Assembly: GCA_029212505.1 (NCBI GenBank)
Contig: JARGOS010000012.1
Location: 1-44,390, forward strand
Direction: 5' to 3'
DNA: 44,390 nt
Source of the DNA: Legionellaceae bacterium
Lineage (GTDB): Bacteria; Pseudomonadota; Gammaproteobacteria; Legionellales; Legionellaceae
The notes below the pieces were generated by a model, which saw only the letters and a program-made list of their open reading frames with translations, searched no databases and was not told the origin of the DNA. The position numbers were made by a program, and so were the translations under genes. Positions 5,382 to 19,633 of the stretch are shown here, piece after piece (position 1 is the first letter of the stretch; each line of letters opens with the position of its first letter).

Positions 5382-6953
5382 CTAAAAGCGATCGAACGAT
5401 GACTCAAGCCAAGGCGCCACATAGTTATCTGGTATGTTTTTTCCTAACAACTGCCCTGGCTCAAGATACTGATACAATTCACGCAAGGTAAGCACTTGAT
5501 TATGTGCCACACGTCGCATCACATGAGCCGGCGTGAGCGCCTCCGGTGTCTCAAGACCCATGCTACCTAACAAATCTAAAAAACTTTTTATCGTATTTTG
5601 ATGAAACTGCTTCACGCGATGCTTTTTATCTTTCACCACCAAACCCCGCTCTAAGCGCTTATTTTGTGTCGCAACACCGGTTGGACACGTGTTTGCATGG
5701 CATTGTTTTGATTGAATACAGCCAATGCTCATCATCATGGTGCGTGCTGCATGACATAAATCCGCTCCCATCGCTAAATGGGCAATCAAATCAAACCCTG
5801 TTGTGATTTTACCGCTGCAGATAATACGTATTTTGTCGCGCAAATGCGTACCAACCAAAGCATTATGAACAAAAATAAGCGCAGGCTCTAATGCTTCACC
5901 TAAACGATTGGTGTATTCCAGCGGTGCCGCGCCTGTGCCGCCTTCCGCACCATCGACCGTAATAAAATCAGGATATATTTCGAGCTCCCTCATGGCTTTA
6001 CATAGACCCAAAAACTCACTTTTTCGGCCGATGCATAATTTAAAACCCACAGGTTTACCCCCTGATAAATCTCGCAAGTGCTGTATAAATAAAATCAAGC
6101 CTTTGGGCGAATCAAATGCTGAATGTGCTGGAGGTGAAATCACATCGTGCCCCATGGGTACTCTACGTACATCGGCGATTTCTTGTGTTAACTTAACCGC
6201 CGGTAAAATACCGCCATGCGAAGGCTTAGCACCTTGAGAGAGCTTGATTTCTATCATTTTAACTTCTGGACGGCTGGCTTCTTTTTCAAATAATTTATCA
6301 CAAAAATGCCCGTTTTTATCTCGACAACCAAAATACCCGGTACCCACCTGAAAAATAAGATCGCCTCCTTGAAGATGATGTGAACTTAAACCACCCTCGC
6401 CCGTGTTATGCGCAAAATTCCCCAGTGCCGCGCCTTGATTGAGCGCCATAATCGCTCGTGAAGATAAAGCACCAAAACTCATGGCCGAAATATTTAAACG
6501 CGATGCATCGTAAGGCTGCTTGCAAGCATCACCCCCGACCCGAATACGCGCACCAGATTCTGGAGCAATTTTAGGGGCGAGCGAGTGCTCTGCCCAGGTG
6601 TAACCAACTTCTAATATATCGCGCTCGGTCCCAAACGGAACGGTATCACGTATATTTTTAGCCCGCTCGTAAATTAAAGAACGAATTTCACGATTAAACG
6701 GCCGCTCTGCTTCATCATCAGCAATAAAATATTGCCGAATTTCAGGTCCAAAAAATTCTAAAATATAACGCATGTGCCCAAGGATCGGGAAATTACGTAA
6801 AATGGCATGCTTGGTTTGCGTCACATCATAAAGCCACAAACCAAGCAAAGGGAAGAGCACAAAAAGAAACCATCGAATATCATGCAACATTGTTAATGCA
6901 AGGAAAACAGCTAACAGCACAGCCCCTAGCGCAAGATACCACGGTCTTCGCAT
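5382..6953 (-). CDS. Membrane-anchored FMN-binding glutamate synthase-like protein
   Basis: A 523-residue member of the GltB2/archaeal-type glutamate synthase domain family. It is not a full GOGAT: the amidotransferase and GXGXG domains are absent. Residues 1-45 hold two hydrophobic segments (WYLALGAVLLAVFLALTM and WFLFVLFPLLGLWLY). The synthase barrel follows, with MSFGALSSRAIMALNQGA, GEGGLS, SQGAKPSHGG, HSAFDSPKGL, a VDGAEGGTGAAP loop for FMN phosphate and the cysteine cluster CxxxxxCxxxxC in CIQSKQCHANTCPTGVATQ, which binds a [3Fe-4S] centre in glutamate synthases. The start ATG follows AAGGAT. The physiological electron donor and substrate of these stand-alone proteins are uncertain. An APRT-like fragment lies just upstream on the same strand. 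Confidence 0.88.
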   Translation of the reverse strand: MRRPWYLALGAVLLAVFLALTMLHDIRWFLFVLFPLLGLWLYDVTQTKHAILRNFPILGHMRYILEFFGPEIRQYFIADDEAERPFNREIRSLIYERAKNIRDTVPFGTERDILEVGYTWAEHSLAPKIAPESGARIRVGGDACKQPYDASRLNISAMSFGALSSRAIMALNQGAALGNFAHNTGEGGLSSHHLQGGDLIFQVGTGYFGCRDKNGHFCDKLFEKEASRPEVKMIEIKLSQGAKPSHGGILPAVKLTQEIADVRRVPMGHDVISPPAHSAFDSPKGLILFIQHLRDLSGGKPVGFKLCIGRKSEFLGLCKAMRELEIYPDFITVDGAEGGTGAAPLEYTNRLGEALEPALIFVHNALVGTHLRDKIRIICSGKITTGFDLIAHLAMGADLCHAARTMMMSIGCIQSKQCHANTCPTGVATQNKRLERGLVVKDKKHRVKQFHQNTIKSFLDLLGSMGLETPEALTPAHVMRRVAHNQVLTLRELYQYLEPGQLLGKNIPDNYVAPWLESSFDRF

Positions 6954-7556: not shown

Positions 7557-9071
7557 ATGCCATATTCCTTGAATCGCTTAAATGTTGATGATGCACTGCA
7601 AACTCTCGAGATAGCGAGAGATGATTTGTCGAACAAACCTGAAGCAGCAATCGTTAAACTCATTAGGAAAAAGTATAAACTACTTGCTTTAAAGCATCAT
7701 CCCGATCGTCCTGGTGGAAATAATTCACGATTCCAGTCCGTAAAAAAAGCCTACGACGCGTTGATTATAGAAACTGATGAGCATGCCGACGAGCTCGCTC
7801 GTTATTTTGAATCAGCGCACGTCGATATTTCGTTAAAAGCCTTTAATTTTGTCATGGAAGAGGAAATTGAACGTATCAACTCCGAGTTAAGACGTGAGTT
7901 TTCAGAGTTAGCAAATGAAAAAGCTAAAGAAAGTTTTGCCAAACAACATGCAGATTTCTTTAATCTTGCACAAACTTTAGAAAACAACAAAGAAAAAATT
8001 CTAAGAATACGTATCGAAGCACTAAGCCAACAAGAACTTGACCATTCCATGAAACAAGCGTACACCAACGGCATTATTGAGTGGCGAAAACACATCATCA
8101 CCTTGTTCGGTGAAGAAGGCTTAGATGATTTTCAATATAGAGAAGCTTTAGCTTCTGGTAACCTTTGGCCAATTCTTGATACGGCTAAATTAATGCTACC
8201 CACCAAGTGGTTAGCTGCCATCATAAGCAGTGTGGCTTTATGCTTATCTCATACAATGGATGCACTGCCATACCTTATGTTTGGACATCAGCTCCCTGAA
8301 CAGATGTTGATGCTGTACTATCTCGTGTCTGCAATCTTTCTAGCCACTTTCCTCCCCACACCTGTAGCTTTATTAGTCTTGGGCGCGCCTACAATTACAA
8401 AGGCTTTACTGATGCTTGCATGCCCCTACAACCTTATCATTCGGCCATTGCAAGAGCGTTTTTCCGAGCAACCCAAACACCTTATTAGCGCAGGAATAGC
8501 ACTGTTAGCTCTTCTAGCAAGCACATCAGTTTTTTTCATAATTACGACGACTCCTCCAGCTATCCTCATTGCATTGGTTCAAATAGCCCTGCAATTTTGG
8601 ATCATATATCAAAATTACGCTTTGATCATGGCCGAGAAAGAATTAACCGGCGAGTACAATCCAGTACTTATTAAACTTCTGGTTATCTCTACTATCGGTA
8701 GTCTCCTGAATGTAGCGACTGCTACATCAAGCCTTTTTTCAAGCGTACACGCGCTGATGTGCCATTTACCAGAGCCTACAAGCGCGTTGCTCTGGCAAGA
8801 TCAAGCATTTGATTTGATTATGAACTGTAACATGTCTCAGATAATTTCTAGACTCCAATTTCACAAAGATTTTGTTGCCAACATCATGGAGCAACTTCCG
8901 CTACCGGAAAAACCAGTTACCGATCAAGTAAAAAATGCCTACACTTCAGAAAATACACGTGCTACGCAGTCGCATTATTTTTTCAAAACACCAAAAGATG
9001 CATGCCCCAAACATGCCAAAATTCGTGAACCATTGACGCCTGAGGCCGAGCATTGTTTAGAATTTTCTTGA
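7557..9071 (+). CDS. Membrane protein with N-terminal J domain
   Basis: A 504-residue protein with a DnaJ-type domain at about residues 8-75: helix RKKYKLLALK, then HPD at residues 48-50 followed by RPGG, and FQSVKKAYDAL. J domains stimulate Hsp70 (DnaK) ATPase, and the HPD tripeptide needed for that is intact. Residues about 85-190 are highly charged and helical, probably coiled coil. About 210-400 contain five to six hydrophobic segments (for example LVSAIFLATFLPTPVALLVLG and LISAGIALLALLASTSVFFI), and the last 100 residues are soluble. There is no Gly/Phe linker or zinc finger as in DnaJ proper. The ribosome site is weak. The gene lies between a hemE remnant and hemE itself. A role in targeting DnaK to a membrane, or an effector role, is inference. 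Confidence 0.75.
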   Translation: MPYSLNRLNVDDALQTLEIARDDLSNKPEAAIVKLIRKKYKLLALKHHPDRPGGNNSRFQSVKKAYDALIIETDEHADELARYFESAHVDISLKAFNFVMEEEIERINSELRREFSELANEKAKESFAKQHADFFNLAQTLENNKEKILRIRIEALSQQELDHSMKQAYTNGIIEWRKHIITLFGEEGLDDFQYREALASGNLWPILDTAKLMLPTKWLAAIISSVALCLSHTMDALPYLMFGHQLPEQMLMLYYLVSAIFLATFLPTPVALLVLGAPTITKALLMLACPYNLIIRPLQERFSEQPKHLISAGIALLALLASTSVFFIITTTPPAILIALVQIALQFWIIYQNYALIMAEKELTGEYNPVLIKLLVISTIGSLLNVATATSSLFSSVHALMCHLPEPTSALLWQDQAFDLIMNCNMSQIISRLQFHKDFVANIMEQLPLPEKPVTDQVKNAYTSENTRATQSHYFFKTPKDACPKHAKIREPLTPEAEHCLEFS

Positions 9072-10289: not shown

Positions 10290-10640
10290 ATGAATATTTT
10301 ACGCATCGAAGCCCTACGTACCACCACCCGCATTGGCGTGCATGCCTGGGAACAACGCATTGACCAAGTGTTATTACTGGATATTGATATCCCACTCAGC
10401 TCAGAAAAACTCGAGCAAGCCGATGACGCCATCGAAAATACACTTGATTACGACGCGCTCTGCCAGCATGTGACCCATTTAGTTGAGTCGAACGCTTTTA
10501 AACTCATCGAAACCGTCGCTCTGCGTGTCATCGAGTCCGTCCAAAGCAGGTTTGGAGTCCAAGCTATCACCGTGCGTGTAAGCAAACCTCATGCCATTGC
10601 GAATGCCAGCAACATCAGTATTACCATGACACGCACCTAA
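10290..10640 (+). CDS. folB: Dihydroneopterin aldolase
   Basis: Converts 7,8-dihydroneopterin to 6-hydroxymethyl-7,8-dihydropterin and glycolaldehyde in folate synthesis. The 116-residue protein shows the family pattern: IGVHAWEQRIDQVLLLDIDI, the TLDYDALCQHV segment, LIETVALRV with the Glu that anchors the pterin, and the C-terminal VRVSKPHAIANASNISI (family SKPxA). Length equals that of E. coli FolB within a few residues. Its last 162 bases are also covered on the opposite strand by the C-terminal tail of the degenerate P-type ATPase frame, an unusual antisense overlap. Confidence 0.93.
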   Translation: MNILRIEALRTTTRIGVHAWEQRIDQVLLLDIDIPLSSEKLEQADDAIENTLDYDALCQHVTHLVESNAFKLIETVALRVIESVQSRFGVQAITVRVSKPHAIANASNISITMTRT

Positions 10641-13136
10641 ATTAGATTGAGATTGAGATTGAGGCATAATTTCAGGCGCGTCTTCACAACTAAAACGATA
10701 GACATTCGCAAAAATCAGGAGTGTCTGAAGCATCATGAGTGCGGCCCCAACTGCGGGGCTCATCATCATGCCTGTTCCAAATAATAACCCCATCGGGGCA
10801 AAAACTGCAACGGCGTTATACAGCAAATTAAACGCTAGATTTTGATTGATGTGTTCAACCGTTCGTTCAGCAGTTTTAAACACTTGGAGCACCGAGAGTA
10901 AGCTATCATCATGGATAACCGCAGATGCAGCCCCTTGCGCTGCCACATGCCCGCCTGTGTGCGCAACAGCTAAACCAAAATCACTCGCGGCAATCGCACT
11001 AGCATCATTGCCATAATCCCCAACCATGGCCACCGTGCACCCTTGTTCTTGTAGCTCTTGAACATAGCCTTGTTTTGATTTGTCTCGGGTATGACCTGCT
11101 TTTGTTGTAACATCCAAAATCTGTATTTTAAACTGAGTATCTTGTAGTTTTTCCTCTAAGTTTGTTAAGTCCATATCTTCGGGTAAAAATACGGATTCGC
11201 TCATGTCTTTCACAAAATATGCTTTAGGATTATCACTTAAATAAACAACCCCTTCTTTTACATTATTCAGATCCCCCTCTAATGAGGATATCAATTTAAA
11301 TTCATACCCACTCTCTCTATCTGGCGCACAATTATAAGAAACATGCTTCACATCAATACTAAGCGCCGTCGCATAAAGCTCGGCTGTACTTTTATCTGCT
11401 CCTGTACACATGAGTACCTTTTTACCGGCGTCTTGCAGCGCTTGAACCACAACACCGGCTTTGCTACGCAGCTTATCTTCTAAAACCACATGGCCTATAA
11501 CAACACCATTCGTAGCTAGATACACGACACTTTCACCAAAACCAACCTCAGGTGCCTCAACTGCAATACTCGCTTGCTTCATCATGTTTTGATTTCCAAG
11601 CACATATTCCACATCATCGAGTTTCACACGAATACCCGTGCGTTCATGCGAGACCACCTGGCGCCTACCAGCCACACGCTCGCCCTTATAGGCTTTTCGA
11701 ATCGCGCCAGCCATTGCGTGTGGTTCGCCTTCTTCAAGTGTTGCCATGAGACCTAGTATTTCTTTACTCGTATAATTTTGAACTTTAGGCTCGCCTTCGG
11801 TGAGTGTGCCGTTTAAATCAAACACGACACAATCAACAGCCGCAGCGGCTTCTAGATGCTCAGGAACTCGAAAAGATACATCGTCGTTCTTATCTTCTTT
11901 CTTAAATTGATTAATACCTACTTGAATCACAAGCGGAGTAATCAACCCAAATGTACACGGACAGGCGGCAACTAAAACCGACGAAACGCACTGCAAAGCA
12001 AGCACCCATGAAGAAAAATACACACCAACAATCATACCCGAAAGTAAAGCAACAGCGACCACAGCAGGAATAAAAAATTGGAGTATATATGCTGTTGTCT
12101 TAGGTTTTGGAGGTGGATTTTCTTGAGCTCGTTTGATTTTGGCCTCAAGAATGCGTGCATCTTCTTGGGCCAAAAAAGAATCACGTGCCGCGGCGCTTGC
12201 TTTAAATAAAAGCGAGTCACCACCTGAGACAGACATGATTTTTGTGCCGGCATCAAGTTTTTCATGACAAACCAAGGGTGTTAAACGCTCTGAGCCCTGT
12301 TTATATTTATTCGATGTAAAACCTGCTCCCGACACAAACTCACCGTCCACAGGTAAAATTTTACCGGGGAACACATGAAAAACATCATCTTTATTAATCT
12401 TATGACGTGGAATTTTGCGACCATCCTCGCGTATCACCTCTGAAGGTAATGCCGTATCATCTTGAAGTCGTGTTATGGCAGATAATTTTGCTTTAAACGC
12501 CTCTTCAATCGCAAGGCCCGCATGTCGAAAACCAAAGATTAATAAACCGGCCTCAAACATCATTGGCACACCAGGAACAAAAAGTGCAGTAACAGAAACC
12601 AGTAATATCACGCCCGTGCTGATAGAAAAAAGTGTATCCATCGTCCAATGGCCTTTCCGCAACCCACGGTACGCATGACGATAAAAAGGCCAACCCAGAC
12701 CTACCGTTAGACCAAGACTCATCGAGGCGATAACAACCGTTAACAACCAAGGCATGCTTGTGATAAATAGCGGCAAAACTAATAAGGAAAAACCAGAAAA
12801 AAGCCCTAATGCGCCTTTATACTTATGGGGCCACACTGTGGTTTCAGGTGCATCCTCTTCAGGTTCAGGTTCAGGTTCAGATTCAGATATATCATCCGTA
12901 TTTTCAAATACATCATCCAAAAGCTTAGATACAAAACCTATGTCATCAAGAAGTTTAAATACGTGTGCATGAACATCACAATCGCTACGTAATTTATCCG
13001 TATCAAGTATTACGGTATGTGTAAGGTGAGCTATTAAAAGATCACAATTACCCAATAACTCATCGTTTTTGAATGCATGCTTAACCGCTTCAACACAACA
13101 ACCACCCATATCAGGAACAGAATAAGTATAAATCAA
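10479..13136 (-). CDS. Degenerate heavy-metal (P1B) P-type ATPase-like protein
   Basis: An 885-residue frame with the architecture of CopA/ZntA-type metal pumps: N-terminal metal-binding domain (residues 1-75, MGGCC in place of MxCxxC), acidic EP-rich linker (84-95), membrane helices, actuator, the CPC metal site ACPCTFG (Cys392, Cys394), phosphorylation and nucleotide domains, and two final helices. Most catalytic motifs are changed: TGE of the actuator is QGS at 280-282, DKTGT is DLNGT at 440-444 (the Asp remains), HP of the nucleotide domain is PH at 472-473, TGD is TGA at 578-580, and GDGxND is GDYGND at 706-711. About 75 extra residues lie between the last two. The final 53 residues are antisense to folB. 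TTG at 13136 follows AGGA. Pumping seems unlikely; a binding or pseudoenzyme role is possible. Confidence 0.8.
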   Translation of the reverse strand: MIYTYSVPDMGGCCVEAVKHAFKNDELLGNCDLLIAHLTHTVILDTDKLRSDCDVHAHVFKLLDDIGFVSKLLDDVFENTDDISESEPEPEPEEDAPETTVWPHKYKGALGLFSGFSLLVLPLFITSMPWLLTVVIASMSLGLTVGLGWPFYRHAYRGLRKGHWTMDTLFSISTGVILLVSVTALFVPGVPMMFEAGLLIFGFRHAGLAIEEAFKAKLSAITRLQDDTALPSEVIREDGRKIPRHKINKDDVFHVFPGKILPVDGEFVSGAGFTSNKYKQGSERLTPLVCHEKLDAGTKIMSVSGGDSLLFKASAAARDSFLAQEDARILEAKIKRAQENPPPKPKTTAYILQFFIPAVVAVALLSGMIVGVYFSSWVLALQCVSSVLVAACPCTFGLITPLVIQVGINQFKKEDKNDDVSFRVPEHLEAAAAVDCVVFDLNGTLTEGEPKVQNYTSKEILGLMATLEEGEPHAMAGAIRKAYKGERVAGRRQVVSHERTGIRVKLDDVEYVLGNQNMMKQASIAVEAPEVGFGESVVYLATNGVVIGHVVLEDKLRSKAGVVVQALQDAGKKVLMCTGADKSTAELYATALSIDVKHVSYNCAPDRESGYEFKLISSLEGDLNNVKEGVVYLSDNPKAYFVKDMSESVFLPEDMDLTNLEEKLQDTQFKIQILDVTTKAGHTRDKSKQGYVQELQEQGCTVAMVGDYGNDASAIAASDFGLAVAHTGGHVAAQGAASAVIHDDSLLSVLQVFKTAERTVEHINQNLAFNLLYNAVAVFAPMGLLFGTGMMMSPAVGAALMMLQTLLIFANVYRFSCEDAPEIMPQSQSQSNLGACHGNTDVAGIRNGMRFAYTHGDSLDSKPALDGLDDTQSDGFDEFKSVRLN
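10645..10662. repeat. Tandem hexamer GATTGA x3 beside folB stop
   Basis: Three perfect copies of GATTGA begin four bases after the folB stop codon. On the minus strand they encode SQSQSQ-like residues in the ATPase tail. Copy number change would keep that frame open. Confidence 0.8.
12858..12887. repeat. Tandem hexamer TTCAGG/TTCAGA x5 in ATPase linker
   Basis: Five hexamers (three TTCAGG, two TTCAGA) encode the alternating SESEPEPEPE linker on the minus strand, between the metal-binding domain and the first membrane helix. Changes in copy number would alter linker length in frame. Confidence 0.8.
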
Positions 13137-13184: not shown

Positions 13185-13784
13185 TTACGACTCCATTCTT
13201 CGAATAATGCCTGAAACACGCTCGCTATGAGCGATGGCTCCTTGGGCTTTTTCTGCTTGCGTTTTGGAAGCAAAAGGACCGACCACCACACGATGCCACG
13301 CTGCACCTTGTTGTGTAATGGTTTTAATGTTGGCCTCAATACCTCGCATCACAAGCCCAGCCAACATTTGCTCAGCATCCTCACGTCGTTGAAATGAAGC
13401 AAGTTGCAACACATAATAAGTTTGATGCGGATTAATATTCACCGTATCCGCCACCGCAGGTGAAGCAGGCGCTGAAGCAGCAGGAGCAGAAACAGAGGCG
13501 GTCTTTGCGATTTCAGAAGGCGTTTTTTTGGGCGGCTCGGTTTTCTCTTGCGTAAGCAGAGTATAAAATTCAAATTTAGGCTTAGGCAAGGCTGCCACAT
13601 CGACACCTGAATCTTCGACAACGGCGGGATGCCCTAAATGAATTTTTAACCAACTGATAACCAACACCGGGTTACAAAACCAAGAAAAAGCATAGCCCAA
13701 CACAAAACCAAGGATAACCCATGGAACCCTCGAGGTTGTTGAGCGAGGTTTTCTCTTTCTACGCTGTTCGGGATAGTTTGCCAT
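13185..13784 (-). CDS. SPOR-domain membrane protein (FtsN-like)
   Basis: A 199-residue bitopic protein. A basic cytoplasmic N-terminus (RRKRKPRS) precedes one membrane helix (VPWVILGFVLGYAFSWF) and a Pro/Ala/Lys-rich periplasmic linker. The C-terminal SPOR domain runs about 120-195 (YYVLQLASFQRREDAEQML, then HRVVVGPFASKTQAEKAQ), which binds denuded septal peptidoglycan. This is the FtsN layout, and position directly downstream of argS is typical for such genes in gammaproteobacteria. The ATG at 13784 overlaps the argS stop as TGATG, so translation is probably coupled; a GTG three bases earlier is also possible. Whether it is the essential FtsN or a paralogue cannot be decided here. Confidence 0.85.
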   Translation of the reverse strand: MANYPEQRRKRKPRSTTSRVPWVILGFVLGYAFSWFCNPVLVISWLKIHLGHPAVVEDSGVDVAALPKPKFEFYTLLTQEKTEPPKKTPSEIAKTASVSAPAASAPASPAVADTVNINPHQTYYVLQLASFQRREDAEQMLAGLVMRGIEANIKTITQQGAAWHRVVVGPFASKTQAEKAQGAIAHSERVSGIIRRMES

Positions 13785-15547
13785 CACATGCTCTCAGGAT
13801 AAGAAACACCCAGCAAGGTTAAGCCATTACGTAACACCTGGCGCACAGCCGACAGCAAGCAAAAACGCGCAGACCGTAGGGCTTTGTCCTCACACAATAA
13901 AGGCACGGCATTGTAATAAGCATGCAGTGCATTCGCCAACTCTCTTAAATAATAGGCTATTTGGTGAGGTTCGCAAGCTTCTGCCGCAATCTGTATCGCA
14001 TCAGGGTAACGCCCGATTTGTGTCACCAAAGCAGATTCGTGTTTTTCGGTGAGTAAATCCAAGTTTTCAAGACCGATGTTTTTATCCCATGCCATCTCGC
14101 GTGCTTCAAGTTGCCTAAACACACTGCTGATACGTGCGTGTGCGTATTGAATATAATACACCGGATTATCGCGTGATTCAGACTTTGCTAAATCTAAATC
14201 AAAATCCATGTGTTGCTCAGGTTTACGCATGACATAGAAAAACCGTGCTGCGTCGCTACCGACTTCGTCGCGTAACTCACGTAGCGTGACAAAAGAACCA
14301 CTGCGCGTCGACATTTGAACACGCTCGCCTTGACGATACAAAATAGCAAATTGAACGAGACACACGCGCAACGCTTCATCATCATGGCCCAATGCTTTAA
14401 CCGCGGCTTTAAGGCGGGGTATATACCCGTGATGATCGGCACCAAACAGATCAATCACACGATCAAACCCACGTCTGTATTTATCCCAATGATAGGCAAC
14501 ATCTGATGCAAAATAGGTCGGCTGACCGTTGGCCCGCACCAACACACGATCTTTTTCATCACCAAATTCGGTGGACTTAAACCAGACGGCTCCTTCTTGT
14601 TCAAACGTAAAGCCGGCTTGTTTTAATGCCGCCACGCCTTCAGCAATCGCCCCTGAATCCAATAAGCTTCGTTCAGAAAACCATTGGTCATAATGCACAC
14701 CAAATTCACCCAAATCTTGCTTAATATCATCCAGTACCGAGTTAAGTGCTGTTTGGTGAAAGATTAAAAACCCTGCTTCACCTAACGTTTGTTTTGCATG
14801 GTTAATCAGTGCGTCGATATATTTTTCTTTATCCCCACCTTCCGGTTCATCCAAAGGTAAATCAGCGATGATATCTGACCAAACGCGACGATACGTGTCT
14901 TGATGTTCGGCATACAACGCAGCAGCAATATCACGAACATAATCACCTTTATAAGCATTTGCAGGAAAGGTGATAACTTCACCAGCGCAAGCTAAATAAC
15001 GGAGCCATACGCTCACGGCGAGAATATCCATTTGACGCCCGGCGTCGTTGACATAGTATTCACGCGTAATATCAAACCCTGCTTTTTCTAATAAATTAGC
15101 CAAGCTTGCGCCAAACGCAGCACTACGGCCATGCCCTACATGCAACGGCCCGGTTGGGTTAGCTGAAACGTATTCTAAAAGCACGCGCTCGCGCTTGCCG
15201 TTGGTATTTGCACCAAATGCATCCGCTTGTTCAAACACACGTTTTAAAATCAACGATGCACGACTTGCTGCTTCCATAAAAAAATTAATAAAGCCCGGCC
15301 CTGCAATTTCTACACGTTTTAATAAGGCGTGCTCGGGCAAAGCCTCAACTAATTTAGTGGCAAGCACTTGAGGTGGCTGCTTGCAAGGCTTGGCCAGCAT
15401 CAACGCTATATTCGTGGCAAAATCACCGTGCCGCGTATCTTTTGTCGGTTCTACTTTAATAGAAAGTTGAAGATCGGCGGGAATCACAGCATCTGTTTTT
15501 AGCTGTTCTAGGGCTTGATTAATTAACTGCTCAACGATAGATTTCAT
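13784..15547 (-). CDS. argS: Arginyl-tRNA synthetase
   Basis: Charges tRNA-Arg with arginine, class I enzyme. The 587-residue protein has the N-terminal Add-1 tRNA-binding domain (to about residue 105). The HIGH-type signature is HVGHG at residues 136-140, after SANPTGPL. The KMSKS region is represented by MSTRSG near residue 411, and the C-terminal anticodon-binding helices end [10 protein letters not shown]. Length is as expected. The stop overlaps the start of the SPOR protein. The rhodanese-secB-gpsA group begins divergently about 140 bases upstream. Confidence 0.97.
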
Positions 15548-18448: not shown

Positions 18449-19633
18449 CTACACCATCGCAACGCGTGGCACATAACTTTTAAGCTGTTCCGAAAACTGG
18501 CGTAAAACATCTACGCCTGATTCTTCGGCCTGTCGGCACCACGCTTGTAACGCCTCGATGAGTTCTTTTTGAGACGTTGCGGTTCTTTGCCAAATATCTT
18601 GTAACGATTGCCGGTAAGCATACACCATTCGAAGCCGTTCGTAACGTTGAAGCAAGGCTTCTAATCGAGAGCTCGCATGAGATGACAACAAACCTTCGCG
18701 TCGTCGCAATAAAACACCTGCGCGTTGGAGTAATGCTTTATCATTTTTATTCATCACGCGTTGACGTTTTTCATATTGTAAGCTTGGACGCACAACACGT
18801 TTATAATAGTGCGACATGATTTGAAAGCGATTACCTACCACGGCTCGAACGGTTTCTAAATCAACTTGAAATTTTTGTTTATCACGCGCTAAGCGAGGTG
18901 GCAGCTTCTTCACTTTGGCTAACCCCAAGCATGATAAACAACGAATATAAAACCAGCCAATATCAAATTCCCACCAGTGGATAGAAAACTTGGCAGACGA
19001 CGCAAACGTATGATGATTGTTATGTAATTCTTCACCACCAATCCAAAACGCCCAAGGAATGATATTGGTCGATGCATCTTCCGTCTCAAAATTACGATAA
19101 CCCCAGTAATGGCCAATACCGTTAATTACACCCGCTGCCCATAACGGAATCCAAAGCATTTGGAGCGCCCAAATACTGATGCCTGGAATACCGAACAATA
19201 AGGCATTAATCAATAATAAAATCACCACGCCTGAACCACAAAATCGCTTATATACATTCCGCTCGAGCCAATCATCAGGCGTTCCATGGGCGTATTTTTC
19301 AACCAGTGCTTGATCTTTTGAAGCCGCGCGATATAAATCAACGCCTTCCCACAGCACTTTTTTAATGCCATGTACCACAGGGCTATGCGGATCACCTTCG
19401 GTCTCGGTTGCGGCATGGTGTTTACGATGAATCGCAACCCACTCCGATGTCACCATACCTGTCGTAAGCCATAACCAAAATCGAAAAAAATGACTAACCA
19501 TAGGATGCAGTGTTAATGCGCGATGCGCCTGACATCGATGTAAATAAATCGTCACGCCTGCAATTGTGATTTGTGTCACAATCAAAGCCGCTAACATATA
19601 CCCCCAAAACGACAAGTTTAATAAACCAAACAT
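18449..19633 (-). CDS. Fatty-acid (acyl) desaturase, integral membrane
   Basis: A 394-residue membrane di-iron desaturase of the acyl-CoA/phospholipid delta-9 type. The three histidine boxes are intact: HRCQAHR near residue 33, HRKHH near 70 and HNNHH near 204. Membrane helices surround them (MLAALIVTQITIAGVTIYLH, and VVILLLINALLFGIPG with WALQMLWIPLWAAGV). The last 125 residues are a charged helical extension (LEALLQRYERLRMVYAYRQ, LIEALQAWCRQAEESGV) seen in other proteobacterial DesA-type proteins of this length. It probably introduces a double bond in membrane acyl chains to adjust fluidity. It is divergent from the plsC pair, sharing a 137-base regulatory spacer, and is followed by zipA. 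Confidence 0.9.
   Translation of the reverse strand: MFGLLNLSFWGYMLAALIVTQITIAGVTIYLHRCQAHRALTLHPMVSHFFRFWLWLTTGMVTSEWVAIHRKHHAATETEGDPHSPVVHGIKKVLWEGVDLYRAASKDQALVEKYAHGTPDDWLERNVYKRFCGSGVVILLLINALLFGIPGISIWALQMLWIPLWAAGVINGIGHYWGYRNFETEDASTNIIPWAFWIGGEELHNNHHTFASSAKFSIHWWEFDIGWFYIRCLSCLGLAKVKKLPPRLARDKQKFQVDLETVRAVVGNRFQIMSHYYKRVVRPSLQYEKRQRVMNKNDKALLQRAGVLLRRREGLLSSHASSRLEALLQRYERLRMVYAYRQSLQDIWQRTATSQKELIEALQAWCRQAEESGVDVLRQFSEQLKSYVPRVAMV

What the first reader, a model, noticed from the sequence alone, without database searches (positions are those of the whole stretch)
10479..13136. P-type metal ATPase with nearly every catalytic motif altered but the frame intact
TGE is QGS, DKTGT is DLNGT, the HP motif is PH, TGD is TGA and GDGxND is GDYGND, yet the CPC metal site, the phosphorylatable Asp440, the membrane helices and 885 open codons persist. 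Random decay would be expected to add stops; this pattern suggests a pseudoenzyme kept for metal binding or sensing, or a transporter with a new cycle.
Basis: partly seen in the sequence, partly recalled or inferred. Interest (0 to 1): 0.7.

Follow-up and report, generated by a model that had tools for sequence, protein, structure and literature searches.

The report
Legionella-family metal ATPase lacking signature motifs
This gene belongs to a conserved family of metal-pump-like membrane proteins, found so far almost only in Legionella's bacterial family, that keeps the metal site and chemical core of a pump but has lost the textbook residues that pumps use to reset themselves.

Summary
In detail: on the minus strand, 10479-13136 is an intact 885-codon P1B-type ATPase frame with DLNGT for DKTGT, QGS for TGE, TGA for TGD and GDYGND for GDGxND. 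It is not decay, because relatives share the changes. By score, 91 of 143 Legionellales genomes (18 of 33 genera) have a member. I compared 80 rows lacking the DKTGT lysine with 36 having it. In the 80, the phospho-Asp, CPC and N-domain Glu are invariant; the hinge Lys and GDxxND are kept in 79 of 79 readable rows. The DKTGT Thr is kept in 0 of 80, TGE Glu in 1 of 80, TGD Asp in 0 of 79. dN/dS is 0.10-0.25 in 24 close pairs. In 15 of 17 neighbourhoods the gene follows argS and a SPOR gene. In 5 of 7 genomes of its genus it is the only PF00122 protein found. The HAD catalytic residues survive and losses are densest in the actuator domain. I therefore favour a copper-site protein that can still form an aspartyl-phosphate but has lost the usual dephosphorylation step, over an inert pseudoenzyme. 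This mechanism is inferred. My literature searches showed no description of it.

The parts
10479..13136 (-). The gene: divergent P1B-type ATPase, 885 aa, TTG start
12903..13136 (-). N-terminal HMA-like region (residues 1-78, my delimitation), metal motif degraded to GGCC
   Evidence: 53 of 80 family rows have a CxxC in the first 45 residues read, the window copy does not; Pfam HMA matches 5 of 29 family and 20 of 29 canonical members
12639..12641 (-). Met166, equivalent of LpCopA entry-site Met148
   Evidence: alignment to 3RFU; M in 68 of 80 family rows
12522..12536 (-). FGFRH (201-205) in M2, family-specific Arg/His
   Evidence: H205 in 74 of 80, R204 in 61 of 80 (W in 16); canonical rows have V23 I13 at 204 and N17 L11 S4 D2 (2 others not shown) at 205; H205 family-specific
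12291..12299 (-). QGS in place of TGE (280-282), actuator phosphatase loop
   Evidence: Gly kept 80 of 80; Glu kept 1 of 80
11955..11963 (-). CPC metal site (392-394)
   Evidence: 80 of 80
11805..11819 (-). DLNGT in place of DKTGT (440-444), phosphorylatable Asp440
   Evidence: D 80, G 80, T444 80 of 80; second position L72 I3 Y3 V2 (no K, by the definition of the group); third position N70 H9 R1
11718..11735 (-). N-domain E468...H473 (ATP-binding Glu and His), Pro changed to Ala
   Evidence: E 80 of 80, H 74 of 80, P 53 of 80
11394..11405 (-). TGAD in place of TGD(N) (578-581); an Asp sits one residue later
   Evidence: TGD Asp 0 of 79 readable rows; D at 581 in 89% of family rows
11082..11324 (-). 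81-residue insert in the P domain (605-685)
   Evidence: only in the window copy and its 84% relative among the 29 rows of A1; dN/dS 0.109 within it
11073..11075 (-). Lys688, P-domain (HAD motif III) lysine
   Evidence: 79 of 79 readable rows
11004..11021 (-). GDYGND (706-711), Mg-site Asp707 and Asp711 kept
   Evidence: G, D, N, D each 79 of 79 readable rows; third residue A57 G15 and others
10815..10820 (-). Tyr773-Asn774 in TM5, equivalent of LpCopA Y688/N689
   Evidence: 79 of 79 rows that reach it; mapping counted from the alignment
10722..10736 (-). M801..Q804-T805 in TM6 (canonical MxxSS)
   Evidence: M 74 of 80 (3 rows gapped); first Ser replaced by Q58/E16
13185..13787 (-). SPOR-domain (FtsN-like) gene directly upstream
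   Evidence: conserved neighbour
13784..15547 (-). argS, next upstream gene; argS-SPOR-ATPase is the usual order

Best explanation
A member of a Legionellaceae family of copper-type (P1B-1-like) P-type ATPases with a re-worked catalytic cycle. Shown: an intact gene under purifying selection at an old, conserved locus. Its membrane metal site (Met166, CPC, Tyr-Asn, Met801), the HAD phosphoryl-transfer core (Asp440, Thr578, Lys688, Asp707/Asp711) and the ATP-pocket Glu, His and Gly are kept, while residues specific to the P-type cycle are lost nearly throughout the family (TGE Glu, DKTGT Lys and Thr, TGD Asp). Inferred: it still binds ATP and Cu(I) and can phosphorylate Asp440. But the actuator domain no longer catalyses hydrolysis of the phosphoenzyme, so turnover is slow, spontaneous or partner-assisted. 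It would then act as a slow metal pump or loader, or as a metal-gated phospho-switch, rather than as a bulk copper exporter like CopA.
For: Shared motifs: 80 family rows against 36 canonical rows (the two sets were defined by the DKTGT lysine, so that residue is 0 of 80 by construction, while the other losses are not). 76 of 80 rows keep all 18 listed core residues; the exceptions are two Thr-to-Ser, one Gly501-to-Thr and one partly masked row; median pairwise identity in the family is 35%. One split separates 19 canonical from 77 other rows, SH-aLRT 100, branch 1.84 (short search, motif columns left in). dN/dS 0.25 for the window pair and 0.096-0.253 over 24 close, partly overlapping pairs. 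Spread: 91 of 143 Legionellales genomes at E <= 1e-145. argS-SPOR-ATPase order in 15 of 17 neighbourhoods, the window's own included. Losses of canonical-invariant positions: 10 of 21 in the actuator domain, 21 of 99 in the membrane, P and N parts (the single HMA/linker position left out; Fisher p 0.025). In 5 of 7 genomes of the genus it is the only PF00122 protein. TGE as the dephosphorylation motif and DKTGT as the signature: PMC10654040 and PMC11970713 (passages).
Against: No biochemistry. Loss of the DKTGT Lys and Thr may abolish phosphorylation altogether (recalled from SERCA mutagenesis, not checked). Selection is milder than on canonical CopA (median dN/dS 0.141 for 24 pairs against 0.078 for the 5 of 12 canonical pairs with dS under 1.5) and than on most neighbouring genes (0.054-0.139; the SPOR gene is 0.233). 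The C-terminal tail and one P-domain stretch of 35 codons show dN/dS near or above 1. Two of 132 matches contain an internal stop. A member found later has DLHKT, losing the Gly (L185). One of the 80 keeps the TGE Glu (L078). Some genomes of the order had no match, or best matches that read DKTGT, so the family is dispensable in some. The copper-site serine of TM6 is not conserved (A27 T21 S21), so substrate is uncertain. The structure prediction failed (pLDDT 32).
Confidence: 0.55

Rival explanations
1. A true pseudoenzyme: no phosphorylation, the fold kept as a membrane copper-binding scaffold, sensor or chaperone, or as a partner of another protein.
For: Loss of the P-type signature residues in nearly all rows read; conserved metal site; weaker constraint than on CopA.
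Against: A pseudoenzyme need not keep Asp440, Thr444, Glu468, Lys688, Asp707 and Asp711 invariant across rows with a median 35% identity. The HAD core is as conserved as the metal site.
Confidence: 0.25
2. A membrane-anchored HAD phosphatase or phosphotransferase (DLNGT resembling the DLDGT of HAD phosphatases, recalled), no longer an ion pump.
For: The form of motif I; 9 of 80 family rows carry His two places after the Asp, which could act as acid/base (role of that position from PMC6321591, passages).
Against: Asn, present in 70 of 80 rows, cannot replace the general acid/base Asp. Profile matches to HAD phosphatases are no more frequent than in canonical CopA: SerB in 14 of 29 family against 24 of 29 canonical members. 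The CPC site is invariant.
Confidence: 0.12
3. Simple pseudogene or assembly error in one metagenome-assembled genome.
For: Two of 132 matches contain an internal stop, though not in the window copy.
Against: The same motifs occur in all 30 first-pass relatives, two of them the same locus, and in 80 rows, some from genomes of one or two contigs; dN/dS well below 1.
Confidence: 0.02

Closest known systems
P1B-1 copper ATPase CopA (Legionella pneumophila LpCopA, PDB 3RFU)
   Same: Domain layout and CPC, Met148, Tyr688/Asn689 and Met717 equivalents (best PDB match, E 2.8e-56); an M2 Glu equivalent to Glu189 in the multiple alignment.
   Different: DKTGT, TGE, TGD, first Gly of GxG and TM6 MxxSS are changed; Arg/His in M2; the window copy has a degraded HMA motif and an 81-residue P-domain insert; it scores below the copper and heavy-metal ATPase cut-offs, which a canonical Legionellaceae copy passes.
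HAD-superfamily phosphatases (such as phosphoserine phosphatase)
   Same: HAD domain (PF00702) with the nucleophile Asp, motif II Thr, motif III Lys and motif IV Asp pair (motif scheme recalled).
   Different: The residue two places after the nucleophile is mostly Asn, not the general acid/base Asp; actuator, nucleotide-binding and membrane domains present; profile matches no more frequent than for CopA.
Functionally uncharacterized P-type ATPase (FUPA) families of the transporter classification
   Same: Divergent P-type ATPases without known substrate (PMC3573892, passages).
   Different: Sequences not compared; whether a FUPA family covers this one was not tested. The 2010 review that defines them was not read.

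Membership tests
P-type ATPase superfamily | E1-E2 actuator domain plus HAD domain at curated cut-offs | tested here: met
   PF00122 58.2 bits (28.1), PF00702 63.7 bits (26.4), TIGR01494 148.8 bits (62.3):
P-type ATPase superfamily | DKTGT signature | tested here: not met
   DLNGT in the window copy; Thr of DKTGT in 0 of 80 family rows and 36 of 36 canonical rows (rows sorted by the Lys)
P-type ATPase superfamily | Glu in the actuator phosphatase motif TGE | tested here: not met
   QGS in the window copy; E in 1 of 80 family rows, 36 of 36 canonical rows
P-type ATPase superfamily | phosphorylatable Asp, GDxxND, P-domain Lys | tested here: met
   80 of 80, 79 of 79, 79 of 79
P1B-1 copper ATPase (CopA) | curated profile cut-off | tested here: not met
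   TIGR01511 270.2 of 397; TIGR01525 246.8 of 346.25; a canonical Legionellaceae copy scores 617 and 638.7. NF007952 242.6 of 1316 is not informative: the canonical copy fails it too (680.3)
P1B-1 copper ATPase (CopA) | CPC in TM4, YN in TM5, MxxSS in TM6 | tested here: inconclusive
   CPC and YN met; TM6 is MxxQT, first Ser replaced
P1B-1 copper ATPase (CopA) | Cu(I) transport | not testable with these tools
   needs biochemistry
HAD superfamily | four catalytic motifs: Asp; Thr/Ser; Lys; Asp pair (scheme recalled) | tested here: met
   D440, T578, K688, D707/D711; PF00702 above cut-off
Catalytically dead pseudoenzyme | loss of residues essential for chemistry | tested here: inconclusive
   coupling residues lost, HAD core kept
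FUPA families | sequence clustering with a named FUPA family | not tested
   no such sequences in the tools used; only passages of PMC3573892 seen

The most novel reading that the evidence does not exclude
A P-type ATPase lineage that has abandoned the standard Post-Albers reset: it forms the aspartyl-phosphate without the DKTGT Lys/Thr and releases it without the TGE glutamate, using the metal site as input. It would be a copper-gated phospho-switch or slow metal loader, and in several small genomes the only P-type ATPase the cell has.
Probability: 0.3. Interest if true: 0.85.

Novelty: new variant of a known kind. Interest (0 to 1): 0.62.

Why it matters
[quoted passage not shown] A conserved family that lacks both but keeps the phosphoryl-transfer core and a copper-type site makes the role of those residues testable in a natural variant. 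It also points to an unstudied, possibly metal-handling protein in a bacterial family best known for living in amoebae (recalled).

Tried and rejected
Pseudogene or sequencing error: rejected (shared motifs; dN/dS).

A more phosphatase-like P domain: tested by profile hits with canonical CopA as control; the control hit SerB more often (24 of 29 against 14 of 29) and Cof-type hydrolases too (29 of 29 against 8 of 29), so rejected as evidence.

Functional clue from neighbours: the Pfam-named ones (argS, SPOR, hemE, FolB, DAHP synthase, GrpE, Hsp70, DnaJ) are housekeeping genes and gave no hint. Neighbours were otherwise only clustered.

Plasmid search with the member L016: all 5000 records kept (cap reached) are under 60% identity; the 25 rows shown are 27-29% and, where named, ordinary heavy-metal or copper ATPases.

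Literature: 'DLNGT'+'ATPase' 0 papers; 'Legionella'+'P-type ATPase'+'DKTGT' 10; with argS 4; 'P-type ATPase'+'pseudoenzyme' 0; FUPA/P-type ATPase/Legionella, 20 of 147 listed; 'functionally uncharacterized P-type ATPase' 2; TGE/pseudo, 15 of 160 listed; HAD, 10 of 20 listed; 'heavy metal translocating P-type'+'Legionella' 4; DKTGT/degenerate/inactive, 12 of 18 listed. Judged by the titles and abstract starts shown, none describes such a family. Beyond listings I saw passages of PMC10654040, PMC11970713, PMC6321591, PMC8880997 and PMC3573892, and section 15 of PMC10654040.

Rows dropped before counts: 13 of 101 extracted reading frames were collapsed as duplicates by core sequence; L135 (wrong frame) left out; L084 and L085 left out of the tree, which used 10 of the 29 class-level loci L123-L151. 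Members found later (L181, L182, L184, L185) are not in the 80. The rows are mostly best matches, not a random sample.
Full report
WHAT IS THERE. The frame at 10479-13136 lies on the minus strand: 885 codons from TTG 13136 to the stop at 10479-10481. Its same-genus relatives begin MSI followed by (H/Y)(T/S)Y where it reads (M)IYTY, so the TTG start fits. Pfam finds an E1-E2 ATPase domain and a HAD hydrolase domain, both above cut-off. NCBIfam places it above the general P-type cut-off (TIGR01494) but below the copper and heavy-metal ATPase cut-offs; a canonical Legionellaceae copy passes both. The best solved relative is the copper ATPase structure 3RFU. The window is contig C14 of a 1.95 Mb genome, 98% complete. 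The closest named relative is a contig of a Legionellaceae metagenome-assembled genome, JARGNP010000019.1, 83-84% identical.

THE ALTERED MOTIFS ARE A FAMILY TRAIT. In the family search 88 of 93 genomes had some match. Thirty relatives were read, the best matches and so not a random sample: all have DL(N/H/R)GT and none has the TGE glutamate. A wider set of 88 unique frames and then 116 rows was sorted by one residue, the lysine of DKTGT: 36 rows have it (canonical), 80 do not (family). The lysine is therefore 0 of 80 by construction; the other counts are not. In the 80: Asp440, Gly443, Thr444, CPC and Glu468 are 80 of 80. Lys688, Gly706, Asp707, Asn710 and Asp711 are 79 of 79 readable rows, and Tyr773/Asn774 79 of 79. 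The DKTGT threonine is 0 of 80 (N70 H9 R1) against 36 of 36 canonical. The TGE glutamate is 1 of 80 (S38, A29, others; L078 keeps it) against 36 of 36. The TGD aspartate is 0 of 79 (A64 S12 E2 T1) against 35 of 35, with an Asp one place later in 89% of family rows. Four further members found later keep the Asp; one of them, L185, reads DLHKT.

NOT DECAY. A tree of 96 rows puts the 19 canonical rows on one side of one branch (SH-aLRT 100, length 1.84). It was a short search with the motif columns left in, and the program flagged several long branches. dN/dS for the window gene against its 84% relative is 0.25. Over 24 close family pairs, partly sharing members, it is 0.096-0.253, median 0.141; for the 5 of 12 canonical pairs with dS under 1.5 the median is 0.078. 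Purifying selection is clear but milder than on CopA; the C-terminal tail is not constrained. Two of the 132 matches listed contain an internal stop; not all 132 were read by me.

SPREAD. At E <= 1e-145, 91 of 143 Legionellales genomes, 18 of 33 genera, have a match. The cut-off is a score, not a reading of motifs; the best canonical row outside the order scored 1.6e-139. It misses divergent members in genera g7, g10 and g33. Of 20 genomes looked at again, 4 had no match, and in several others the best match reads DKTGT. Among 369 genomes sampled from the class, matches above 465 bits came from three Legionellaceae genomes and one genome of another order, G307, whose copy has DLNGT. That order is held as two genomes, one with a member. 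Among 398 genomes sampled from the phylum, partly the same ones, only the window's own passed 1e-140. In both large searches only the two best candidates per genome were scored, so members could be missed. The order argS-SPOR-ATPase is seen in 15 of 17 neighbourhoods, in one of them with a 128-residue frame between. It recurs at L158-L160, L166 and L168 in the second set, so this looks like an old resident locus. A second paralogous group (mostly LGFWHLG in place of FGFRH) sits elsewhere.

THE ONLY P-TYPE ATPASE. PF00122 and TIGR01494 find no other P-type ATPase in this genome. In the genus, 5 of 7 genomes (each at least 91% complete) have a single PF00122 match, this gene; the other two also have a canonical copy. 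Assemblies are incomplete, so absence is likely rather than proven.

WHAT IS KEPT AND LOST. By the pairwise alignment to 3RFU (counted by me), Met148, Cys382/384, Tyr688/Asn689 and Met717 correspond to M166, C392/C394, Y773/N774 and M801, and Ser721 to T805. For M2 the pairwise alignment differs from the multiple alignment; I follow the latter, which pairs E195 with Glu189 and E211 with Glu205 (columns). New family-specific residues include His205 in M2 (94% of rows) and Gln or Glu at 804. Of positions invariant in canonical rows, 10 of 21 in the actuator domain are lost in the family, against 21 of 99 in the membrane, P and N parts (one HMA/linker position left out; Fisher p 0.025; one rough, uncorrected test). 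76 of 80 rows keep all 18 core positions listed.

HOW IT MOST LIKELY WORKS. Shown: gene, family, conservation, selection. Inferred: the P domain still transfers phosphate from ATP to Asp440, because the residues HAD enzymes need are kept. The actuator loop may still dock (its Gly is 80 of 80) but cannot activate water as the TGE glutamate does. So the phosphoenzyme is reset slowly or by another route, and the protein is a slow loader or a metal-gated switch. In HAD phosphatases the residue two places after the nucleophile is the acid/base (PMC6321591, passages); here it is mostly Asn, which cannot do this, though His in 9 of 80 rows might. Rival readings and their tests are given in their sections.

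LIMITS. 

Noticed in passing
18449-19633 (-): A 394-residue frame matches fatty acid desaturase (residues 10-224) and, C-terminally, the ISL3 transposase DDE model (269-388); frames of the same cluster are in 6 of 17 neighbourhoods compared.
   Followed up: partly
11769-12101 and 11082-11429 (-), within the gene: Synonymous divergence from the 84% relative is only 0.07-0.08 over M3-M4 and the first P segment and 0.19-0.21 over the second P segment and insert, against 0.48 in the N domain between and 0.64-1.33 in neighbouring genes: possible recent exchange between lineages.
   Followed up: no
11082-11324 (-): 81-residue P-domain insert found, among the 29 rows of A1, only in the window copy and its nearest relative; dN/dS 0.109 within it.
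   Followed up: no
L086-L099, L102, L123: Second paralogous group, mostly with GFWH in M2, CPC followed by (A/V)LS, and Glu in place of the TM6 Gln.
   Followed up: partly
L078 / G006:C94: A member that keeps TGE yet has DLNGT and TGAD: a possible intermediate or reversal. A second piece of a similar protein lies on another contig of that genome.
   Followed up: no
L056 / G081:C1:2146375-2148540: Relative at the argS-SPOR locus whose match contains one internal TAA; a 128-residue frame lies between it and the SPOR gene.
   Followed up: no
5382-6953 (-): Stand-alone 523-residue glutamate-synthase-domain protein.
   Followed up: no
7557-9071 (+): 504-residue protein with an N-terminal J domain, in no shared cluster among the neighbourhoods compared.
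   Followed up: no
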